The notes under the pieces were generated by a model. That model had not been told where the DNA came from and did not search any database. It worked only from the letters and a program-made list of their open reading frames with translations. A stretch of 64,000 nucleotides of DNA from Nakamurella multipartita DSM 44233 (GTDB lineage: Bacteria > Actinomycetota > Actinomycetes > Mycobacteriales > Nakamurellaceae): NCBI RefSeq assembly GCF_000024365.1, contig NC_013235.1, positions 5,394,001 to 5,458,000 on the forward strand. Direction: 5' to 3'. Numbering within the stretch: position 1 is the first letter of the stretch; every line of letters starts with the position of its first letter. Shown here piece after piece: positions 9,648-16,626 of the stretch. The position numbers were made by a program, and so were the translations under genes.

Positions 9648-9656
9648 CCCGGACGG

Positions 9657-10643
9657 CTAGTTGTACTGACCGGGGACGTTGATCAATCGTGAGAAGGGCG
9701 GCTGGCCTCCGCAGGCGGTGTGTGGTCGGTGCTGGTTGTACTCGTGGAGCCAGTCGGGGAGGGCATCGCGGCGTTCGTTCTCGCTCGTGTAGCAGCGCGC
9801 ATACGCCCAACCGTCGGCCATGGTGCGGTGAAATCGCTCGACCTTGCCGTTGGTCTGTGGGCGGTATGGCCGCGTTCGCTTCGGAGTGATCGATAGGGCC
9901 TCGCACGTGTCTCGCCACAGGTGAGAACGGTACGCACCACCGTTATCGGACAAGATGCGCTCAATTGCGACCCCTCGGTCGGCGAACCACTCGACCGCTC
10001 GATGCAGGACTCCGACGGCGGTGACAGCGGATTCGTCGTTGTGAACCTCGGTGTAGGCGACGCGCGAGTGGTCATCGATGATGGTGTGCACGAACGCATA
10101 CCCGAGCTTGGGGTTGCGCCACTTGTTCTTCGGCTTGCCGGGAGTGACGGCACGATTCCTCGATCCTTGACGTCGCCCGACGTATCGCCAGCCCCCACCG
10201 TCGGGGATGTTCCCGAGCTTCTTGACGTCCACGTGCACGAGCGAGCCAGGGTGGTCGTGTTCGTATCGGCGGATCGGCTCGCCGGTAGCACGGTCGACGT
10301 AGCAAAGTCGATTCATGCGCGCGGTCGTGAGGATACGGTGGACCGTGGCCGGGGCGATGCCGAGTCGGGCTGCGAGTTGAATAGGCCCTTCCCTCAGGCG
10401 CATTCGTAGGCTCACGCACCGTTTTGTCGTCTTCTTGCTCGTCTTGTTCGGCGAAGACTTCGGCCGTGACGACCGGTCCTGCATCGGCTCGCCAGCAAGG
10501 TAGCGGTCGACCCACCGCTTCACGGTTGGCCACGACACCTGGAAGCGGGCAGCGACTTCGCTGATCGGCCATCCTTCCTCGATGACGAGGCGTGCGACTC
10601 GTAGACGATGACGTGGGGTCAGCGCGGCATTGCGATGACTCAA
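9657..10643 (-). CDS. IS481-family transposase (copy 1)
   Basis: This 328-residue DDE transposase has an N-terminal helix-turn-helix (ISEVAARFQVSWPTVKRWVDRY) and an rve catalytic core. Catalytic residues are visible in HVDVKKLGNIPDGGGW (first Asp), RILSDNGGAYRS (second Asp) and RPYRPQTNGKVERFHR (Glu). The proposed TTG at 10643 aligns with the GTG of the second IS481 copy (both followed by a SHRNAAL/AHRNAPL-type sequence) and has AGGAGG 4 bases upstream. The last residues (NVPGQYN) are encoded by the left terminal inverted repeat, and the stop TAG lies in the flanking CTAG. Confidence 0.93.
   Translation of the reverse strand: MSHRNAALTPRHRLRVARLVIEEGWPISEVAARFQVSWPTVKRWVDRYLAGEPMQDRSSRPKSSPNKTSKKTTKRCVSLRMRLREGPIQLAARLGIAPATVHRILTTARMNRLCYVDRATGEPIRRYEHDHPGSLVHVDVKKLGNIPDGGGWRYVGRRQGSRNRAVTPGKPKNKWRNPKLGYAFVHTIIDDHSRVAYTEVHNDESAVTAVGVLHRAVEWFADRGVAIERILSDNGGAYRSHLWRDTCEALSITPKRTRPYRPQTNGKVERFHRTMADGWAYARCYTSENERRDALPDWLHEYNQHRPHTACGGQPPFSRLINVPGQYN
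9662..9680. repeat. Left terminal inverted repeat of IS481 copy 1
   Basis: Nineteen bases beginning with TGT, identical in inverted form to 12151-12169. It also encodes the C-terminus of the transposase. It is preceded by CTAG and one extra base. Confidence 0.85.
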
Positions 10644-10662
10644 AGTGCCTCCTGAGATAGAT

Positions 10663-10694
10663 CGGTGGCCGGCCGCGTGTGCGACCGGCCACCG
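10663..10694. terminator. Hairpin between passenger operon and transposase
   Basis: CGGTGGCCGG (10663-10672) pairs perfectly with CCGGCCACCG (10685-10694) across a 12-nt loop. It lies 26 bp after the stop of the TfoX-like gene and just before the ribosome site of the transposase, both on the minus strand. It could stop cargo transcripts or limit transposase expression. No T-run follows. Confidence 0.6.
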
Positions 10695-10719
10695 GATGAT
10701 GGAGTTGGAGTAGAGATCT

Positions 10720-11052
10720 CTACTCGGCGCCGTGCGCTGCATGGAAGGTGAGTGCTGGCTCGAGCCAGGACTCGAGCCCAGGTCCCTGGAGTGCGGCCTG
10801 CTCGACGCTGATCCAGCCGTCGCCCATGGGGCGATCTGCGCCCATGAGCGCAGGGTGAGCACCAGGGCGGGTGAGCAGGTCTTCCGCGTCAGTGGGGTCG
10901 ATGCGTAGCAGGAGCGTCCCTTCCCGACGAGCGGCGACAACCATCCGGTCCTCGACCATGAACGACACTCCCCCGAACATCGACACCTCACGAGGGCTGC
11001 GAGCTCTTAGCGCGTCACGAACTCGCTCGACCAGGTCCTTCTGTGCTGTCAT
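10720..11052 (-). CDS. TfoX/Sxy N-terminal-domain protein (IS passenger)
   Basis: The 110-residue product matches the TfoX N-terminal domain: DLVERVRDALRARSPREVSMFGGVSFMVEDRMV, then LLLRIDPTDAEDLLTRPGAHP and a SWLEPALTFHAA end. In Gammaproteobacteria the full Sxy/TfoX protein activates competence genes together with CRP; stand-alone N-terminal domains are common in other bacteria and their role is unknown. The start overlaps the stop of the SnoaL-like gene by 4 bp (ATGA), so the two are translated as one unit. It lies inside the IS481 terminal repeats. Confidence 0.82.
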   Translation of the reverse strand: MTAQKDLVERVRDALRARSPREVSMFGGVSFMVEDRMVVAARREGTLLLRIDPTDAEDLLTRPGAHPALMGADRPMGDGWISVEQAALQGPGLESWLEPALTFHAAHGAE

Positions 11053-11435
11053 CGTCCACCCTTCTCGATGTACTCGGGGCCGCTGTAGTGAAGGTTCAAG
11101 GACGCGATGCGTCCGCCGTCGAAGGTGAAGAACTCGGCGAAGGTCATGGGACCGCCGGGCATGGTCGCCGTGTAGAGCACGGCGGAGCTGTTAGTGCCGT
11201 GCACGTCGTGGATGATCTCGATCTGCTTGACCGTCGCGATGAACCCGGCGACCCCGCCCAGGAAGCCATCGGTGGCGTCGGGGAGGTGTCCAGCGAGGGA
11301 GCCCGTGAAGTCGAGGTGGTCATCCAGCAGAGGCCGTAGGTCAGCCCCGTCCTGGTAACTGTCGATGCCGGACTCGAGGATCCGGTAGTAGTCCTTGAGT
11401 GTCTGAGGTGCGGCAGAAGACAGGGTGGCGGGCAT
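11049..11435 (-). CDS. SnoaL-like (NTF2-fold) protein (IS passenger)
   Basis: The 128-residue product has the cone-shaped NTF2/SnoaL pattern: an N-terminal helix (LKDYYRILESGIDSYQDGADLRPLLDDHLDF) followed by strands including MTFAEFFTFDGGRIASLNLHYSG. Such proteins act as small isomerases or hydrolases, or bind small ligands; no catalytic residue can be named with confidence. The ATG at 11435 is chosen over a longer frame because AAGGAG sits 4 bases before it and the extension would run through the operator region. It is the first gene of a two-gene unit with the TfoX-like gene, divergent from HxlR. Confidence 0.75.
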   Translation of the reverse strand: MPATLSSAAPQTLKDYYRILESGIDSYQDGADLRPLLDDHLDFTGSLAGHLPDATDGFLGGVAGFIATVKQIEIIHDVHGTNSSAVLYTATMPGGPMTFAEFFTFDGGRIASLNLHYSGPEYIEKGGR

Positions 11436-11460
11436 GGCTCTCCTTGGTGTGAGAATGGTG

Positions 11461-11475
11461 CTTGATACTTTCAAG
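11461..11475. promoter_or_regulatory. Operator copy 1, CTTGA-N5-TCAAG
   Basis: The 15-bp inverted repeat CTTGATACTTTCAAG lies between the divergent SnoaL-like and HxlR genes. It overlaps a possible -35 box (TTGATA, 11462-11467) for hxlR transcription. It is a probable binding site for the HxlR regulator encoded next to it. Confidence 0.65.
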
Positions 11476-11481
11476 CAGGCA

Positions 11482-11496
11482 CTTGATAAAGTCAAG
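11482..11496. promoter_or_regulatory. Operator copy 2, CTTGA-N5-TCAAG
   Basis: CTTGATAAAGTCAAG has the same half-sites as copy 1 and starts exactly 21 bp later, two helical turns, so two dimers would sit on one DNA face. It overlaps a possible -10 (GATAAA, 11485-11490) 17 bp after the -35 in copy 1, and a TTGACT -35-like element on the minus strand. Confidence 0.65.
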
Positions 11497-11505
11497 GGGG
11501 TTCAG

Positions 11506-12174
11506 GTGAAGTCCTACGGACAGCTTTGCTCGATCGCTCGCGCCCTGGATGTCGTCGGTGACCGGTGGACTCTCCTGATCGTGCGTGAGCTGCTGATCGG
11601 GGGAGCATTGCGCTTTGGCGAAGTCCAGCGCGGCCTGCCTGGCATCGCGACGAACCTGCTCACCCAGCGTCTGCGGGACCTCGAGACCAACGGTGTCGTC
11701 GTCCGCGAGCCCGCCCCAGGAATCCCGGGCACGCCAACGTATCGGCTTACCGAGCGTGGCCGGGCCCTGGACGGAGTGCTGCGCGAGCTTCTGAAGTGGG
11801 GTGCACCGACGGTTCCAGAGGCGCCGAGTGATGCGGTCTTCCAGATGCACTGGCTCAGCCAACCGGCACGCTTCCTCCTCGCGGATCACAGACCGGACGA
11901 GCCACCGATCGTGATCCGGTTCGGCACCTTCGACGACGGCTTCGACCTCACCGCCGCCGACGGGACCATCACGGTGAACCCTTGCCAGCGCGATGTCAGC
12001 CCCCTGGCGCGTGTTGCAGGCCCCGGGCCGGTACTGGTTGCCCTCCTGCAAGGCGCAATGCCTCTGCCCGCCGCTATCGCGCATGGCGTGGATGTCACCG
12101 GCGATGCCGCGACCCTGACGCGAGTTCTACCAGCGCCGCAAGCGTCGACTAACGTCCCCGGTCAGTACAGCTAG
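11506..12174 (+). CDS. HxlR-family winged-helix regulator with C-terminal extension (IS passenger)
   Basis: The 222-residue product has an N-terminal HxlR-type winged helix (residues about 1-100: SYGQLCSIARALDVVGDRWTL, then RFGEVQRGLPGIATNLLTQR and RLTERGRAL). The second domain of about 110 residues resembles the SCP2-like tail of long HxlR proteins. GTG 11506 is chosen because GGGGG precedes it and the family begins just before YGQLC. HxlR proteins sense reactive aldehydes, quinones or other electrophiles, but no sensing cysteine is obvious beyond the Cys of QLCSIA. Its last residues, NVPGQYS, and the stop come from the IS481 end and the adjacent CTAG, so the natural C-terminus may have been replaced. 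Confidence 0.87.
   Translation: MKSYGQLCSIARALDVVGDRWTLLIVRELLIGGALRFGEVQRGLPGIATNLLTQRLRDLETNGVVVREPAPGIPGTPTYRLTERGRALDGVLRELLKWGAPTVPEAPSDAVFQMHWLSQPARFLLADHRPDEPPIVIRFGTFDDGFDLTAADGTITVNPCQRDVSPLARVAGPGPVLVALLQGAMPLPAAIAHGVDVTGDAATLTRVLPAPQASTNVPGQYS
12151..12169. repeat. Right terminal inverted repeat of IS481 copy 1
   Basis: Exact inverted copy of 9662-9680, ending in ACA. It lies within the 3' end of the HxlR gene and is followed by one base and CTAG. Confidence 0.85.
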
Positions 12175-13972
12175 GACGCTCCTGAATTATCCGTATGTCG
12201 GCCCCTGTTGATCTTGTGTGTTCGGGATGATCTTGGTGTGCAGGGTCGGTCGCGGGATCAGCGTGAGTTGTTGGATGCCGAGTCGGTAGTCGGTGGGCTG
12301 CTCAAGCCGGGCAGCGTGTTCGCGTTTCTGGCCGCGCACCGTCGGGAGGTGTTCCCGGACGGCATGTTCGCGGATCTGTTTCCGTCGGGTCGGGGCCGCC
12401 CGTCAGTGCCGGCCGACGTGATGGCGTCGGTGATTGTGCTGCAGGCTCTGCACGGCCTGTCCGACGCGGACACGGTGGACTCGGTGACGTTCGATCTGCG
12501 GTGGAAGGCAGCGTGCGGGTTACCGGTGACCGCTGCGGCGTTCCATGCCACGACATTGACGTACTGGCGGCGTCGGCTGGCCGCTTCGCAGTCGCCGAAC
12601 CGGATCTTCGACGCGGTCCGCCAGGTCGTGGACCAGACCGGGGTGCTGGCTGGAAAGAGCAGGCGAGCGTTGGATTCCACGATCCTGGACGACGCGGTCG
12701 CCACCCAGGACACGGTCACCCAGTTGATCGCGGCGATCCGCCGGGTCCGCCGCGAGGTACCCGGCGCCGCCGAGGTCGTCGGCGAGCACTGCTCGGCTCA
12801 CGACTATGACGACCCGGGCAAACCGGCGATCGCCTGGAACGATCAGCAGGCCCGCGAGGCCCTTGTCGATGCGCTGGTCACCGACGCGCATCGGGTGCTG
12901 GGACACCTGCCCGACCAGGAGCTCGGACCGAAGGCGGCGGACGCGGTCGCCCTCTTGGCGTTGGTCGCCGGGCAGGACGTGGAACCGGTCGAGGGCTCGG
13001 ACGGCACCGACGGACGGTGGCGGATCGCGCAGCGGGTCGCCCCGGACCGGGTGATCTCCACCGTGGACCCGGAGGCGCGGCACGCCCACAAGACTGTCCA
13101 CCGGCGGCAGGACGGGTTCAAGGCACACATCGCGGTCGAACCCGACACCGGTCTGGTCACCGCCTGCGCGGTGACCATGGCCAGCGGACGCGGCAACAGC
13201 GACGCCGAGGTTGGACCCACCTTGCTGGCACAGGAGACCGAAAAGCTGCACGTGCTGGCCGATTCGGCGTACGGATCGGGATCCGCGCGGGCCGAACTGG
13301 ACCATGCCGGGCACATCGCGTTGATCAAGCCGTTCCCGCTGCGGTCGGCCGTGCCGGACGGGTTCACCCTGGACGACTTCACCGTCGACCCCGAGGCCAG
13401 GACGGCCACCTGCCCGAACGGGGTGACCCGGTCGATCACCGCGCAATGGTCCGTCACCTTCGGAGCGGCTTGCCGCGGCTGCCCGCTCCGGGCCCAATGC
13501 ACGACCAGCGACGCCGGTCGATCGCTGAAGCTGACCGAGTACGAAAGCCTGCTCAGGGCGGCCCGTCGACAAGCGGAAACCGAGGACTTCCAACAGGTCT
13601 ACCGACGGCACCGGCCGATGGTCGAACGATCGATCTCCTGGCTGGTCCGCGGCAACCGCAAAGTCCGCTACCGCGGCGTCGCCAAGAACGACCACTGGTG
13701 GCACCACCGCGCCGCTGCGATCAACCTCAGGCGAATGCTCACCCTCGGGCTGACGCGGGTGAGCGGGACGTGGACCATTGCACCGGCCTGACCGGCCGGC
13801 ACGAGACCTCACCGGGCCGTGAGCAACGGCCCGTCCCTCCGATCAGTCAGGAGAATCATCCAGGGCCGGGCGACGACTCAGGACCACGCCTGACAGCCCG
13901 ATCACGCGCGAACGCTCCCACTGTCCCAAAGCGAACTCCCGAACCCACAAGTGACCGTTATTCAGGAGCGTC
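12175..13972. mobile_element. IS1182-family insertion sequence
   Basis: The element is about 1.8 kb. It is bounded by GACGCTCCTGAAT(T/A)A inverted repeats at 12175-12189 and 13958-13972 and flanked on both sides by CTAG (12171-12174 and 13973-13976), which looks like a 4-bp palindromic target duplication. It contains one transposase gene. It is inserted exactly at the right-hand CTAG of the IS481 element. Confidence 0.85.
12208..13791 (+). CDS. IS1182-family transposase
   Basis: The 527-residue DDE transposase has an N-terminal DUF772-type domain (SVFAFLAAHRREVFPDGMFADLFP, then GRPSVPADVMASVIVLQAL) and an IS4-like catalytic core with the metal-binding Asp of RRALDSTILDD and VLADSAYGSG. Cysteine pairs occur in CRGCPLRAQC, and the C-terminal RRHRPMVERSISWLVRGNRKVRYRG region carries the catalytic Glu. 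The TTG at 12208 gives the longest frame; GTG 12238 is an alternative, and neither has a clear ribosome site. It appears full length. Confidence 0.92.
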   Translation: MILCVRDDLGVQGRSRDQRELLDAESVVGGLLKPGSVFAFLAAHRREVFPDGMFADLFPSGRGRPSVPADVMASVIVLQALHGLSDADTVDSVTFDLRWKAACGLPVTAAAFHATTLTYWRRRLAASQSPNRIFDAVRQVVDQTGVLAGKSRRALDSTILDDAVATQDTVTQLIAAIRRVRREVPGAAEVVGEHCSAHDYDDPGKPAIAWNDQQAREALVDALVTDAHRVLGHLPDQELGPKAADAVALLALVAGQDVEPVEGSDGTDGRWRIAQRVAPDRVISTVDPEARHAHKTVHRRQDGFKAHIAVEPDTGLVTACAVTMASGRGNSDAEVGPTLLAQETEKLHVLADSAYGSGSARAELDHAGHIALIKPFPLRSAVPDGFTLDDFTVDPEARTATCPNGVTRSITAQWSVTFGAACRGCPLRAQCTTSDAGRSLKLTEYESLLRAARRQAETEDFQQVYRRHRPMVERSISWLVRGNRKVRYRGVAKNDHWWHHRAAAINLRRMLTLGLTRVSGTWTIAPA

Positions 13973-14087
13973 CTAGACGGTATGGGAGGCCCGCGGAGTT
14001 GACGGGCCGGGGCCTCTCTCGCAAGTTGTCGTGGATTGCCGACCGGGAGCGGCCCGGTCGGTAGCGCCACAATTGCGGGAGGCCCCG
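13792..14087. other. Noncoding junction of IS1182 and IS110 elements, with hairpins
   Basis: There is no gene here. The first part is the 3' end of IS1182 up to its terminal repeat and CTAG (13973-13976). The rest precedes the IS110 recombinase and holds two hairpins: GGCCCG / CGGGCC near 13988-14008, and a perfect 9-bp stem CCGACCGGG (14039-14047) / CCCGGTCGG (14053-14061) with a 5-nt loop. These could be part of the IS110 left end. Confidence 0.55.
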
Positions 14088-15173
14088 GTGTTCAGTGAGC
14101 GTACGAGTGTGGGTCTGGATGTGCACGCACGGTCGATCGTGGGGTGCGGTCTGGACACGGTGACCGGTGAGGTGTTCCGGCGGCGGTTGACGCCGACGTT
14201 CGCCGGTGTGTCGTCCTGGTTAGCGGAGCTGCCGGCCCCGGTCGCAGTGACGTATGAGGCAGGGCCGACCGGGTTCGGGTTGGCCCGGGAGTTGACCGGT
14301 GCCGGGGTCCGCTGCCTGGTCGCGGCGCCGTCGAAGTTGCAGCGCCCGCCGGGTGACCGGGTGAAGACCGACGCCCGGGACGCCCTGCATCTGGCCCGGC
14401 TGCTGCAGATGGACCAGATCGTGCCGGTCCGGGTGCCGGACCTGGAACAAGAGGCGGCCAGAGACTTGGTCCGGGCCAGGGAAGACGTCCGGGGTGATCT
14501 GATGCGCAGCCGTCATCGGTTGTCGAAACTGCTGCTGCGGCAGGGGATCATCTATTCCGGCGGCCGGCCGTGGACCGGTGCCCACGAGCACTGGCTCCGC
14601 GGGCAGCAGTTCCCGCAGCTGGGGCTGCAGACCGCGTTCGACTCGGCGTTCGAGACGGTGCTGCTCACCCAGGGTCGGCGGGACCGCCTGGACAAGGCGA
14701 TCACCGAGATGGCGCTGAACAGCGAGTTCACCCCTGTCGTGCACCGGCTGTGCTGCCTGCGGGGGGTGTCCACGCTGACCGGGTTCGGTCTCGCGGTCGA
14801 GATCGGCGACTGGCACCGGTTCACCGGCTCCACCATCGGCGCCTACCTGGGTTTGGTGCCCACCGAGTCGTCCTCCGGTGGGCAACGCTCGCAGGGATCG
14901 ATCACCAAGACCGGCAATACCCACGCCCGCCGACTGCTGGTCGAGGCCGCCTGGCATCACCGCAAGTCCTACCGCAACCCCAGCACGGTCATGCAGACCC
15001 GCTGGGATCAGGCCTCCCCCGCGGCACGTGCCCGCGGGCATGCCGGGAACCACCGGCTCCACCGCCGCTGGGAACAGCTACTGGACCGGAGGAAGAAGAC
15101 CGTGATCGCCAACGTCGCCGTCGCCCGCGAGCTCGCCGGCTGGTGCTGGTCCCTGGCCGTCATGGACGACTGA
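14088..15173 (+). CDS. IS110-family transposase (DEDD recombinase)
   Basis: The 361-residue protein has an N-terminal DEDD RuvC-like domain (first Asp in VGLDVHARSIV, Glu in VTYEAGPTGFGLA, Asp residues in RVKTDARDALHLARLL) and a C-terminal transposase_20 domain (GVSTLTGFGLAVEIGDW, FTGSTIGAYLGLVPTESSSG), where a serine is the expected nucleophile. GTG 14088 is supported by GGGAGG 5 bases upstream. IS110 recombinases insert at specific sites guided by a structured RNA made from a noncoding end of the element. The gene looks intact. Confidence 0.92.
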   Translation: MFSERTSVGLDVHARSIVGCGLDTVTGEVFRRRLTPTFAGVSSWLAELPAPVAVTYEAGPTGFGLARELTGAGVRCLVAAPSKLQRPPGDRVKTDARDALHLARLLQMDQIVPVRVPDLEQEAARDLVRAREDVRGDLMRSRHRLSKLLLRQGIIYSGGRPWTGAHEHWLRGQQFPQLGLQTAFDSAFETVLLTQGRRDRLDKAITEMALNSEFTPVVHRLCCLRGVSTLTGFGLAVEIGDWHRFTGSTIGAYLGLVPTESSSGGQRSQGSITKTGNTHARRLLVEAAWHHRKSYRNPSTVMQTRWDQASPAARARGHAGNHRLHRRWEQLLDRRKKTVIANVAVARELAGWCWSLAVMDD

Positions 15174-15516: not shown

Positions 15517-16621
15517 TGTTGTATCCAGGGACATTGGTGACACGCCGGGTCGGCTGGTTGCGGGCATGAGGGAGGGTCCCCTTGGTGAGGTGTGAAGCGA
15601 CCAAGCAAACACGCCGAACCAGGAGGACCCCTCGTGGCCCACCGTAACGCCCCGCTGACCCCCGAGGGACGCCGACGCCTGTGCCAGCGCGTCGACGCCG
15701 GTCGGCCGATCTGTCACGTTGCCGCCGAGGCCGGCGTGGCCCGGCAAACCCTGGCCAAGTGGCACGCCCGCTGGAAGGCCGACGGTCCGGCCGGCCTGCA
15801 GGACCGCTCGTCGCGCCCGGTGTCCTCACCCGGCCAGGTCGACGCCCAGGTCGAGGACGTCGTGGAGTATCTGCGGCGGCACCTCAAGCTCGGTCCGGTG
15901 ATGCTGGCCGCGGAGCTGCGCGAGTTCGGGATCACGCTGGCGCCGTCGACGATCCACCGGGTCCTGGTGCGCCGGGGCATCTCTCGCCTGCGGCACCTGG
16001 ACATCACCGGCCATCAGCTGCGGGAACCGGTCCGCCGGTACGAGTGGGCCGCGCCCGGTGACCTGATCCACGTCGATGTGAAGAAGATCGGCCGCATCCC
16101 CGACGGCGGCGGCTGGCGAATCCACGGCCGGGGCAACGACGCCCACCGAGCCTCCCAGCGGGGTCAGCGACCCGGGTACGCGTTCCTGCACACCGCGATC
16201 GATGACCGGTCCCGGCTGGCCTACACCGAAGAACTGGCCGACGAGAAGTCCGTGACCGCGGCCGGTTTCTGGGCCCGCGCGGTCGAGTTCTTCGCCGCGC
16301 ACGGCATCGAGAGGATCCACCGGGTGCTGACCGACAACGGTTCCTGCTACCGCGGCAAGGACTTCAACACCGCTCTGGGGGCCACGGTCCACAAGTACAC
16401 CCGACCGTACCGACCGCAGACCAACGGAAAGGTCGAGCGGTACCACCGGACCCTGGCCCGGGAATGGGCCTACCGCCAGGCCTGGTCCTGCAACGACGAA
16501 CGAGCCGCCGCCCTGGCCGGGTTCGTGCACCGCTACAACTACCATCGGCCGCACACCGCGCTGAAGGGCAAACCGCCCGCCTACCGCACGCCAGCCGTTA
16601 CCAACCTGTCCGGGCTCAACA
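15517..16621. mobile_element. IS481-family insertion sequence (copy 2)
   Basis: The ends match as imperfect inverted repeats: TGTTGTATCCAGGGACATTGGT from 15517 and the complement of 16600-16621 share the outer TGTTG and the inner TTGGT. The element is 1.1 kb, with the transposase starting about 117 bp inside the left end, which is the normal IS481 layout. CTAG is present on the right (16623-16626) but the left flank is ATCAG, so a clean target duplication is not preserved. Confidence 0.82.
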
Positions 16622-16626
16622 GCTAG
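15634..16626 (+). CDS. IS481-family transposase (copy 2)
   Basis: The 330-residue protein has an N-terminal helix-turn-helix (ICHVAAEAGVARQTLAKWHARW) and an rve core with HVDVKKIGRIPDGGGW, RVLTDNGSCYRG and RPYRPQTNGKVERYHRTL providing the DDE triad. GTG 15634 has AGGAGG 7 bases upstream. It is related to copy 1 but clearly diverged (for example the segment after GGGW differs), so these are two different IS481 types and not a recent duplication. The stop TAG lies in the CTAG that also contains the stop codon of the convergent cyanophycin synthetase gene. Confidence 0.94.
   Translation: MAHRNAPLTPEGRRRLCQRVDAGRPICHVAAEAGVARQTLAKWHARWKADGPAGLQDRSSRPVSSPGQVDAQVEDVVEYLRRHLKLGPVMLAAELREFGITLAPSTIHRVLVRRGISRLRHLDITGHQLREPVRRYEWAAPGDLIHVDVKKIGRIPDGGGWRIHGRGNDAHRASQRGQRPGYAFLHTAIDDRSRLAYTEELADEKSVTAAGFWARAVEFFAAHGIERIHRVLTDNGSCYRGKDFNTALGATVHKYTRPYRPQTNGKVERYHRTLAREWAYRQAWSCNDERAAALAGFVHRYNYHRPHTALKGKPPAYRTPAVTNLSGLNS

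What the first reader, a model, noticed from the sequence alone, without database searches (positions are those of the whole stretch)
9661..12170. IS481 element that carries its own cargo operon inside perfect 19-bp terminal repeats
A transposase and three unrelated genes are enclosed by one pair of perfect inverted repeats flanked by CTAG. Plain IS481 elements end shortly upstream of the transposase start; here no repeat is found there and the only matching end is 1.5 kb further on, after the cargo. The unit looks like a passenger-bearing insertion sequence able to spread a regulator (HxlR) plus TfoX-like and SnoaL-like proteins.
Basis: partly seen in the sequence, partly recalled or inferred. 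Interest (0 to 1): 0.75.

Follow-up and report, generated by a model that had tools for sequence, protein, structure and literature searches.

The report
Jumping gene carrying a regulated operon
This is a real, mobile-looking 2.5-kb insertion sequence that carries a small gene cassette, probably self-regulated, among actinobacteria; the kind was already known, but its relatives show that the same mobile chassis carries many different cassettes.

Summary
A 2,508-bp unit (9662-12169), in a genome whose length equals that of Nakamurella multipartita Y-104T, has perfect 19-bp ends at CTAG and holds an IS481 transposase plus hxlR, an NTF2/SnoaL-like gene and a TfoX_N gene. No second end lies near 10,700. 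Nine further loci in other actinobacteria carry the same unit (79-99% DNA identity over the parts held). Of the 8 copies with both ends readable, 5 have equal 6-bp target repeats; congeners of one host have uninterrupted flanks. The cassette was not found without the IS in the genomes sampled. The cargo looks like one cassette: hxlR diverges from snoaL-tfoX across two conserved 15-bp palindromes.

Passenger-bearing IS481 elements are known (ISPfr21, ISArsp12, TnRErm46), so this is a new member of a known kind. Beyond that: transposases at least 75% identical carry about 15 cassette types, 12 with a clear one-component regulator. One copy is a hybrid that switches type inside the transposase gene. 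In three cassette types the regulator gene reads through the terminal repeat and takes its stop codon from the target site, as the transposase does. Movement was not observed; cassette function is inferred.

The parts
9656..9661 (.). left target repeat GCTAGT (NCTAGN type)
   Evidence: sequence; 6-bp equal repeats in 23 of 31 elements with both ends found (list typed by hand)
9662..9680 (+). terminal inverted repeat, transposase end
9657..10643 (-). IS481 transposase, 328 aa; ends ...VPGQYN and takes its TAG stop from the flanking CTAG
   Evidence: NF033577 338.8 bits; rve domains; sequence
10663..10694 (-). strong 14-bp stem hairpin between cargo operon and transposase gene (possible insulator or terminator, no T-run)
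   Evidence: fold z-score -5.05, 0 of 200 shuffles as good; no T-run terminator found
10720..11052 (-). TfoX_N-domain protein, 110 aa
   Evidence: PF04993, E 1.2e-9, above cut-off
11049..11435 (-). NTF2/SnoaL-like protein, 128 aa, overlapping tfoX start by 4 bp
   Evidence: SnoaL_2 sub-threshold; fold matches mainly NTF2/KSI/SnoaL class, low-confidence model
11461..11475 (.). operator-like palindrome CTTGA-N5-TCAAG
11482..11496 (.). second operator-like palindrome, 21 bp from the first
11506..12174 (+). HxlR-family regulator, 222 aa, reading through the terminal repeat (...TNVPGQYS) into the TAG of the flanking CTAG
   Evidence: PF01638 E 1.3e-24; tail and stop
12151..12169 (-). terminal inverted repeat, cargo end
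12170..12175 (.). right target repeat GCTAGG; its CTAG is also the end of the neighbouring DDE-transposase IS

Best explanation
A passenger-bearing insertion sequence ('transporter IS') of the IS481 family. SHOWN by comparison: one pair of 19-bp ends bounds transposase plus cargo; the unit lies at CTAG, usually between equal 6-bp repeats across the branch; it recurs in several genera. INFERRED from the family: the DDE transposase binds both ends and moves the 2.5 kb as one piece. INFERRED for the cargo: one self-contained regulated cassette, in which HxlR binds the two CTTGA-N5-TCAAG palindromes between the divergent genes and controls snoaL-tfoX (and itself) in response to a small reactive compound that the NTF2-fold protein helps to convert; the role of the TfoX_N protein is open. 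A strong hairpin probably keeps cassette transcription out of the transposase gene. Cassettes change chassis at least sometimes by homologous recombination inside the transposase gene (one hybrid seen).
For: Ends and absence of an inner end. Same cargo in 8 of 32 genome-contig loci (L006 cut off at its left, L020 interrupted and without a right end) and in G018 (L039). Target repeats equal in 23 of 31 elements of any cargo with both ends found. In L008's genome the gap between the flanks is 2,508 bp, and in 8 of 15 congeners the joined flank aligns across the junction without interruption (5 of the 8 inspected). In G804, the genome of L006 (Gordonia aichiensis), two left ends lie on two contigs with different flanks. 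Cassette not found without IS: besides the window and G018, 3 of 61 relatives and 3 of 396 phylum genomes had a snoaL homologue, none with an hxlR or tfoX hit in the stretch fetched (up to about 1.5 kb each side); 10 genomes besides the window's, of 396, had hxlR at E<=1e-30, none with a snoaL or tfoX hit in the stretch fetched. Two operator-like palindromes: 2 in the window against 0.02 expected, both intact in 9 of 10 copies, including two only ~80% identical. Hairpin. Hybrid L016: within the transposase gene 86 diagnostic sites of one parent type, then 96 of the other, switching between alignment columns 625 and 634, with 3 stray sites afterwards and different repeats at its two ends. Element G+C 64.3% against 72.0% for the rest of the window.
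Against: Movement was not observed and no same-species empty site was available for any copy; flank homologues in relatives of the window genome are about 70% identical at best, and the congeners with uninterrupted flanks lack the exact CTAG at the junction in the 5 inspected. The window copy's repeats match at 5 of 6 bases, and 8 of 31 elements have unequal repeats. The palindrome alone is not rare genome-wide: 8 sites, against 10 for the reversed control; it is the conserved close pair that stands out. Inducer, operator binding and effector chemistry are untested. Structure models are poor (mean pLDDT 53 and 54). Searches for cassette genes outside the IS sampled hundreds of genomes with short flanks; the neighbourhoods of the 1,292 plasmid records with some HxlR match (best listed identity 46%) were not examined, L047 apart.
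Confidence: 0.87

Rival explanations
1. The cargo genes belong to the host and an ordinary IS481 landed beside them; the far repeat is a chance or a leftover end.
For: The window holds several IS copies side by side, so patchwork is plausible locally.
Against: Same cargo in the same order with the same or nearly the same ends, where held, in nine other loci in several genera; flanks uninterrupted in congeners of one host; lower G+C than the surroundings.
Confidence: 0.02
2. A composite transposon, or remnant of two IS481 copies: cargo was trapped between two full elements and one transposase was lost.
For: Solo ends do occur: an IR-like end at CCTAGC stands alone in the window's genome, with no transposase hit in the 3 kb fetched and no partner end in 10.5 kb.
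Against: No second close transposase was matched beside any of the HxlR-type copies in the held stretches, and the window has no inner end. Relatives with other cargo have the same single-transposase layout.
Confidence: 0.04
3. The cargo mainly serves the element: HxlR senses stress and sets transposase expression (stress-timed transposition), because snoaL, tfoX and tnp run in one direction.
For: tnp starts 76 bp downstream of tfoX on the same strand; 12 of about 15 cassette types in the branch carry a clear regulator.
Against: A strong hairpin separates cargo from tnp in all 7 HxlR-type copies folded and, with unrelated sequence, in 2 of 5 other cassette types folded; the other 3 (L021, L023, L030) show none, though L030 has almost no intergenic stretch to fold.
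Confidence: 0.12
4. Cargo exchange is not frequent; each transposase lineage picked up its own cassette once, and the hybrid L016 is an isolated case or an assembly artefact.
For: On the transposase tree 17 cargo states need at least 18 changes, only 2 above the minimum of 16 for perfect agreement.
Against: L016 shows one clean switch between two parent types, one of which (L014) is in the same genome, and its two target repeats differ. HxlR, protease-MerR and TetR-SDR cargo each sit at more than one place on the tree, though several of those forks are weakly supported and L011's cargo label rests on a fragment.
Confidence: 0.35

Closest known systems
ISPfr21 (Propionibacterium freudenreichii; PMC2909200, passages read) and ISArsp12 (Arthrobacter plasmid pA2H1; PMC6305408, passages read)
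   Same: IS481 elements with one transposase and two passenger genes, one of them a regulator (reported as TetR for ISPfr21; ArsR for ISArsp12). The ISArsp12 plasmid, fetched as L052, has a transposase 75.8% identical to the window's, ends TGTACTGACCGG..., equal CCTAGA repeats and an element of 2,615 bp.
   Different: Different cargo; no HxlR/SnoaL/TfoX. ISPfr21 itself was not fetched.
TnRErm46 (Rhodococcus equi; PMC6794481, passages read)
   Same: IS481-type transposase moving passenger genes, NCTAGN target repeats, transposase stop codon supplied by the target CTAG.
   Different: 6.9 kb, seven ORFs including erm(46), different terminal repeat; its left-end cargo gene is reported to stop at a TGA inside the repeat, not at the target TAG.
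IS5564 beside cmx (pTP10, L053)
   Same: IS481 transposase (63% identical) with a cargo gene between TGTGATGTCC... ends at CCTAGG.
   Different: A resistance exporter with no regulator annotated beside it; more distant transposase; the 4,156-bp span also holds an IS30-type transposase gene. Whether the literature treats cmx as IS5564 cargo was not read (search listing only).

Membership tests
IS481 family | DDE transposase of the IS481 equivalog | tested here: met
   NF033577, 338.8 bits against cut-off 224; D-D-E with 35 residues between the last two read by eye's sequence
IS481 family | terminal inverted repeats beginning TG(T) | tested here: met
   19 of 19 identical; TG/CA ends of IS481 are stated in a passage of PMC10045372, TGT is recalled
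IS481 family, CTAG-targeting branch | insertion at CTAG with NCTAGN direct repeats | tested here: met
   window 5 of 6 bases; 23 of 31 elements with equal 6-bp repeats, one of them GTTAGC rather than NCTAGN; same target in TnRErm46
transporter IS (IS with passenger genes) | one pair of ends enclosing transposase plus genes unrelated to transposition | tested here: met
   category described in PMC3129680 (passages)
transporter IS (IS with passenger genes) | demonstrated movement of the unit | tested here: inconclusive
   comparative only: congeners with uninterrupted flanks for L008, two left ends in the genome of L006; no assay
redox/electrophile-sensing HxlR regulators (HypR, YodB) | HxlR fold with the N-terminal cysteine | tested here: met
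   PF01638; Cys8 aligns with Cys14 of the YybR chain 4a5m; the redox role of that Cys is recalled
redox/electrophile-sensing HxlR regulators (HypR, YodB) | response to oxidants or electrophiles | not testable with these tools
   RrpA and RrpB models match only below cut-off
SnoaL-like / NTF2 fold | Pfam SnoaL-like domain above cut-off | tested here: not met
   SnoaL_2 18.8 bits against 27; so 'NTF2-fold, SnoaL-like' is a resemblance, not a filed membership

The most novel reading that the evidence does not exclude
One branch of IS481 transposases in actinobacteria is a general chassis for mobile mini-regulons: regulator, operator and effector travel as a unit, and cassettes are swapped between chassis copies by recombination inside the transposase gene. 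The terminal repeat doubles as a C-terminal tail and stop-codon catcher for the cargo regulator as well as the transposase, so both outer genes are closed by the target site itself.
Probability: 0.35. Interest if true: 0.6.

Novelty: new member of a known kind. Interest (0 to 1): 0.42.

Why it matters
The relatives found here show one transposase branch with about 15 different small cassettes, most of them a one-component regulator with an enzyme or transporter, in many actinobacterial genera. That gives a compact, testable model of how ready-regulated stress genes spread, and a list of regulator-target pairs whose pairing is suggested by their shared mobility. For annotators it is a warning that HxlR, TetR or WYL genes beside an IS481 may be its cargo.

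Tried and rejected
Second IS481 end near 10,700: none (best 9 mismatches). Cassette outside the IS: not found in the samples searched. Plasmids: 0 of 174 matching records cover 80% of the unit, and the SnoaL-like protein has no plasmid match at E 1e-5. Phages: two records, each matching part of the transposase stretch. Viral contigs: no relative. Empty site in relatives of the window's genome: flank homologues of about 70% identity at best, not pursued. Empty site for G018's copy: the right flank is found in both congeners, but no match crosses the junction. Structure models of HxlR and the SnoaL-like protein are low confidence; their fold matches are used only as support. The solved-structure search found nothing for the SnoaL-like (E<=1) or TfoX_N (E<=0.1) proteins. 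No sigma-70-type promoter or T-run terminator was found. Paper searches that returned nothing: IS481, passenger genes, CTAG; at least three of HxlR, SnoaL, TfoX, insertion sequence.
Full report
WHERE. The window is G000:C1:5394001-5458000 of a single-contig genome of 6,060,298 bases. That length equals the published Nakamurella multipartita Y-104T genome (PMC3035273, passages read), so the host is taken to be that bacterium.

THE OBSERVATION. The terminal repeats are perfect over 19 bp and flanked by GCTAGT and GCTAGG. They are the only two exact matches in the genome. No inner end exists: the best match starting in 10601-10900 has 9 mismatches. Inside are an IS481 transposase, a TfoX_N protein, an NTF2/SnoaL-like protein and an HxlR regulator. 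The unit is 64.3% G+C against 72.0% for the rest of the window. The right-hand CTAG is shared with the end of a neighbouring multicopy IS, which may explain why the last base of the right target repeat differs.

SAME UNIT ELSEWHERE. A transposase search of genome contigs gave 32 loci. Eight of the 32 carry the same three cargo genes in the same order: L006 (Gordonia aichiensis, left end beyond the contig), L007 (Propioniciclava flava), L008 (Janibacter anophelis), L009 (Nocardioides MAG), L010 (Actinomycetes MAG), L012 (Knoellia flava), L016 (Brachybacterium equifaecis) and L020 (B. nesterenkovii, snoaL interrupted, transposase cut short). A further copy is in G018 (L039): nine besides the window. 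DNA identity to the window is 94-99% for seven of them (for L020 only its left part was aligned, L006 is incomplete), and 80.5% and 79.4% for L012 and L039. Of the 8 HxlR-type copies with both ends readable, 5 have equal 6-bp repeats (L007, L008, L009 with GTTAGC, L012, L039); the window matches at 5 of 6 bases, and L010 and L016 differ. Over 31 elements of any cargo with both ends found, 23 have equal 6-bp repeats; the unequal ones are the window, L010, L016, L019, L024, L025, L033 and L071 (list typed by hand). Not in that count: L006, L011, L017, L020, L026-L029, L037 and L048 (an end not found within the limits), L031, L035 and L036 (skipped by the script), and L072/L073 (distant transposase). 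In L008's genome the flanks are 2,508 bp apart; in 8 of 15 congeners the joined flank aligns across the junction without interruption at 72-81% identity (five inspected). Those five do not share the exact CTAG at the junction, so they show absence of the insert, not an identical pre-insertion site. In the genome of L006 two left ends stand on two contigs with flanks ACTAAT and TCTAGA, while L006's right end has CCTAGG, so that draft genome appears to hold at least two copies.

NOT SEEN WITHOUT THE IS. SnoaL-like homologues: 5 of 61 relatives and 4 of 396 phylum genomes, the window's own included in each. Apart from the window and G018 none had an hxlR or tfoX hit in the stretch fetched, up to about 1.5 kb on each side. 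HxlR at E<=1e-30: 11 of 396 genomes, own included; none of the others had a snoaL or tfoX hit in the stretch fetched. HxlR matches on plasmids (1,292 records, at most 46% identical among those listed) were not followed up, L047 apart. Close transposases are themselves rare: 4 of 394 genomes of the class at E<=1e-140, own included.

THE CASSETTE. hxlR and snoaL-tfoX diverge. Between them lie two palindromes CTTGA-N5-TCAAG at 11461 and 11482, 21 bp apart. The window has no other; 0.02 are expected by chance. Genome-wide there are 8 sites, against 10 for the reversed control pattern, so the single motif is not enriched; the close, conserved pair is the evidence. Both are intact in 9 of 10 copies (in L010 one is changed), and the arms stay fixed in L012 and L039 while spacer bases change. 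HxlR's Cys8 aligns with Cys14 of the YybR/HypR chain; that this Cys is the redox sensor there is recalled. The C-terminal half of HxlR has no Pfam match in the window protein even at E<=10; its L012 counterpart hits Alkyl_sulf_C weakly (E 0.0091, below cut-off). A 14-bp stem separates tfoX from tnp (z -5.05). It is kept in all seven HxlR-type copies folded (z -3.0 to -6.2). Of five other cassette types folded, L014 and L015 have strong unrelated hairpins there and L021, L023 and L030 none; L030 has almost no intergenic stretch, so it is not a fair test.

BOTH OUTER GENES END IN THE TARGET. The transposase ends ...VPGQYN and HxlR ends ...TNVPGQYS; each stop is the TAG of the flanking CTAG. For the transposase this is known from TnRErm46 (PMC6794481, passages read). 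For cargo, an open frame of 200 aa or more reaches a target-site stop in HxlR-type copies (window, L007, L008, L009 with TAA, L016, L020; L010 has the frame but no stop there), in L027 (TetR) and in L049 and L069 (WYL), that is in three cassette types. L026 has a long frame but no stop at its flank, and its TetR reading frame ends before the repeat. The other left ends examined have frames of 125 aa or less there. In L012 and L039 the HxlR-type cargo has only a 9-residue frame, so it stops before the repeat: the read-through is not universal even for this cassette.

THE BRANCH. Transposases at least 75% identical to the window's carry about 15 cassette types; several of these transposase copies are damaged. 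Searches (Pfam; reading frames; record annotation) give: HxlR/SnoaL/TfoX; WYL + alpha/beta hydrolase; TetR + alpha/beta hydrolase; TetR + DoxX-like (just below cut-off); DUF2268 protease + MerR-TipAS; MerR alone; ABC ATPase pair + membrane protein (the latter judged by eye); TetR + SDR; CGNR zinc finger + LysE exporter; MazE/AbrB-like + ABC transporter; WYL + RidA; WYL + VOC; Rrf2 + NAD(P)H-binding; ArsR + permease; AraC + glyoxalase. Twelve of the 15 have a clear helix-turn-helix regulator, two a possible one, one none. L017, L028, L031, L035, L036, L037 and L048 were cut off, damaged, distant or unclear and give no type; L011 shows only a fragment of the MerR gene. A cargo-free form exists farther out: L071, 1,113 bp, transposase 74% identical but with two internal stops. 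IS5564 with cmx (L053) is at 63%.

CARGO EXCHANGE. L016 carries the HxlR-type cargo and the first part of that type's transposase, then switches between alignment columns 625 and 634 (about codon 150) to the type of L014, which lies in the same genome. Within the transposase gene there are 86 diagnostic sites of the first type before the switch and 96 of the second after it, with 3 stray sites of the first type after it (the total of 201 also counts 112 columns of unrelated sequence upstream of the gene). Its two ends have different repeats, ACTAGG and TCTAGA. On the transposase tree 17 cargo states need at least 18 changes against a minimum of 16, so the tree alone is modest evidence (L034 was not in it, and three rows had no cargo state). 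Two long branches meet at its base, and L016, being a hybrid, has no single true place.

KNOWN OR NEW. Passenger-bearing ISs are an established category (PMC3129680, passages read). Within IS481, ISPfr21 (PMC2909200, passages read), ISArsp12 (PMC6305408, passages read) and TnRErm46 are precedents. I found no paper on an HxlR/SnoaL/TfoX insertion sequence (searches; open-licence papers only, listings seen). The element is a new member of a known kind. The width of the cassette range in one transposase branch, the hybrid, and the stop-codon capture by cargo regulators are the parts that I did not see described in those listings and passages.

Noticed in passing
window 12171-13976: Neighbouring IS with a DDE_Tnp_1_6/DUF772 transposase (IS1182-like by recall); its ends CTAGGACGCTCCTGAAT occur 27 times in the genome (26 exact), mostly in pairs about 1,806 bp apart, and it shares its CTAG with the right end of the IS481 unit.
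   Followed up: partly
window 14031-15173 and 15592-16626: IS110-type transposase and a second, distant IS481 transposase (47.6% identical): an IS cluster from 9657 to about 16.6 kb.
   Followed up: no
G000:C1:4082707-4082725 (L003, L087): A lone terminal-repeat-like end (2 mismatches) followed by CCTAGC, with no transposase hit in the fetched 3 kb and no partner end in 10.5 kb: a possible remnant or transposase-less cassette.
   Followed up: partly
L010 210-251: Two facing terminal repeats only 4 bp apart at the left end of the HxlR-type copy, and no stop codon for hxlR there; a tandem insertion, a circle-junction-like product or a low-coverage assembly artefact.
   Followed up: no
L047 2806-5005 (Gordonia hongkongensis plasmid NZ_CP148028.1): An HxlR gene divergent from a DUF1761 gene beside a distant IS481 transposase (about 40% identical): perhaps a second IS481 lineage with an HxlR cassette; ends not looked for.
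   Followed up: no
L074 4248-4270 and 6751-6762: In G018's copy the left terminal repeat begins GGAAC instead of TGTAC, the same five bases that follow the right target repeat; unexplained.
   Followed up: no
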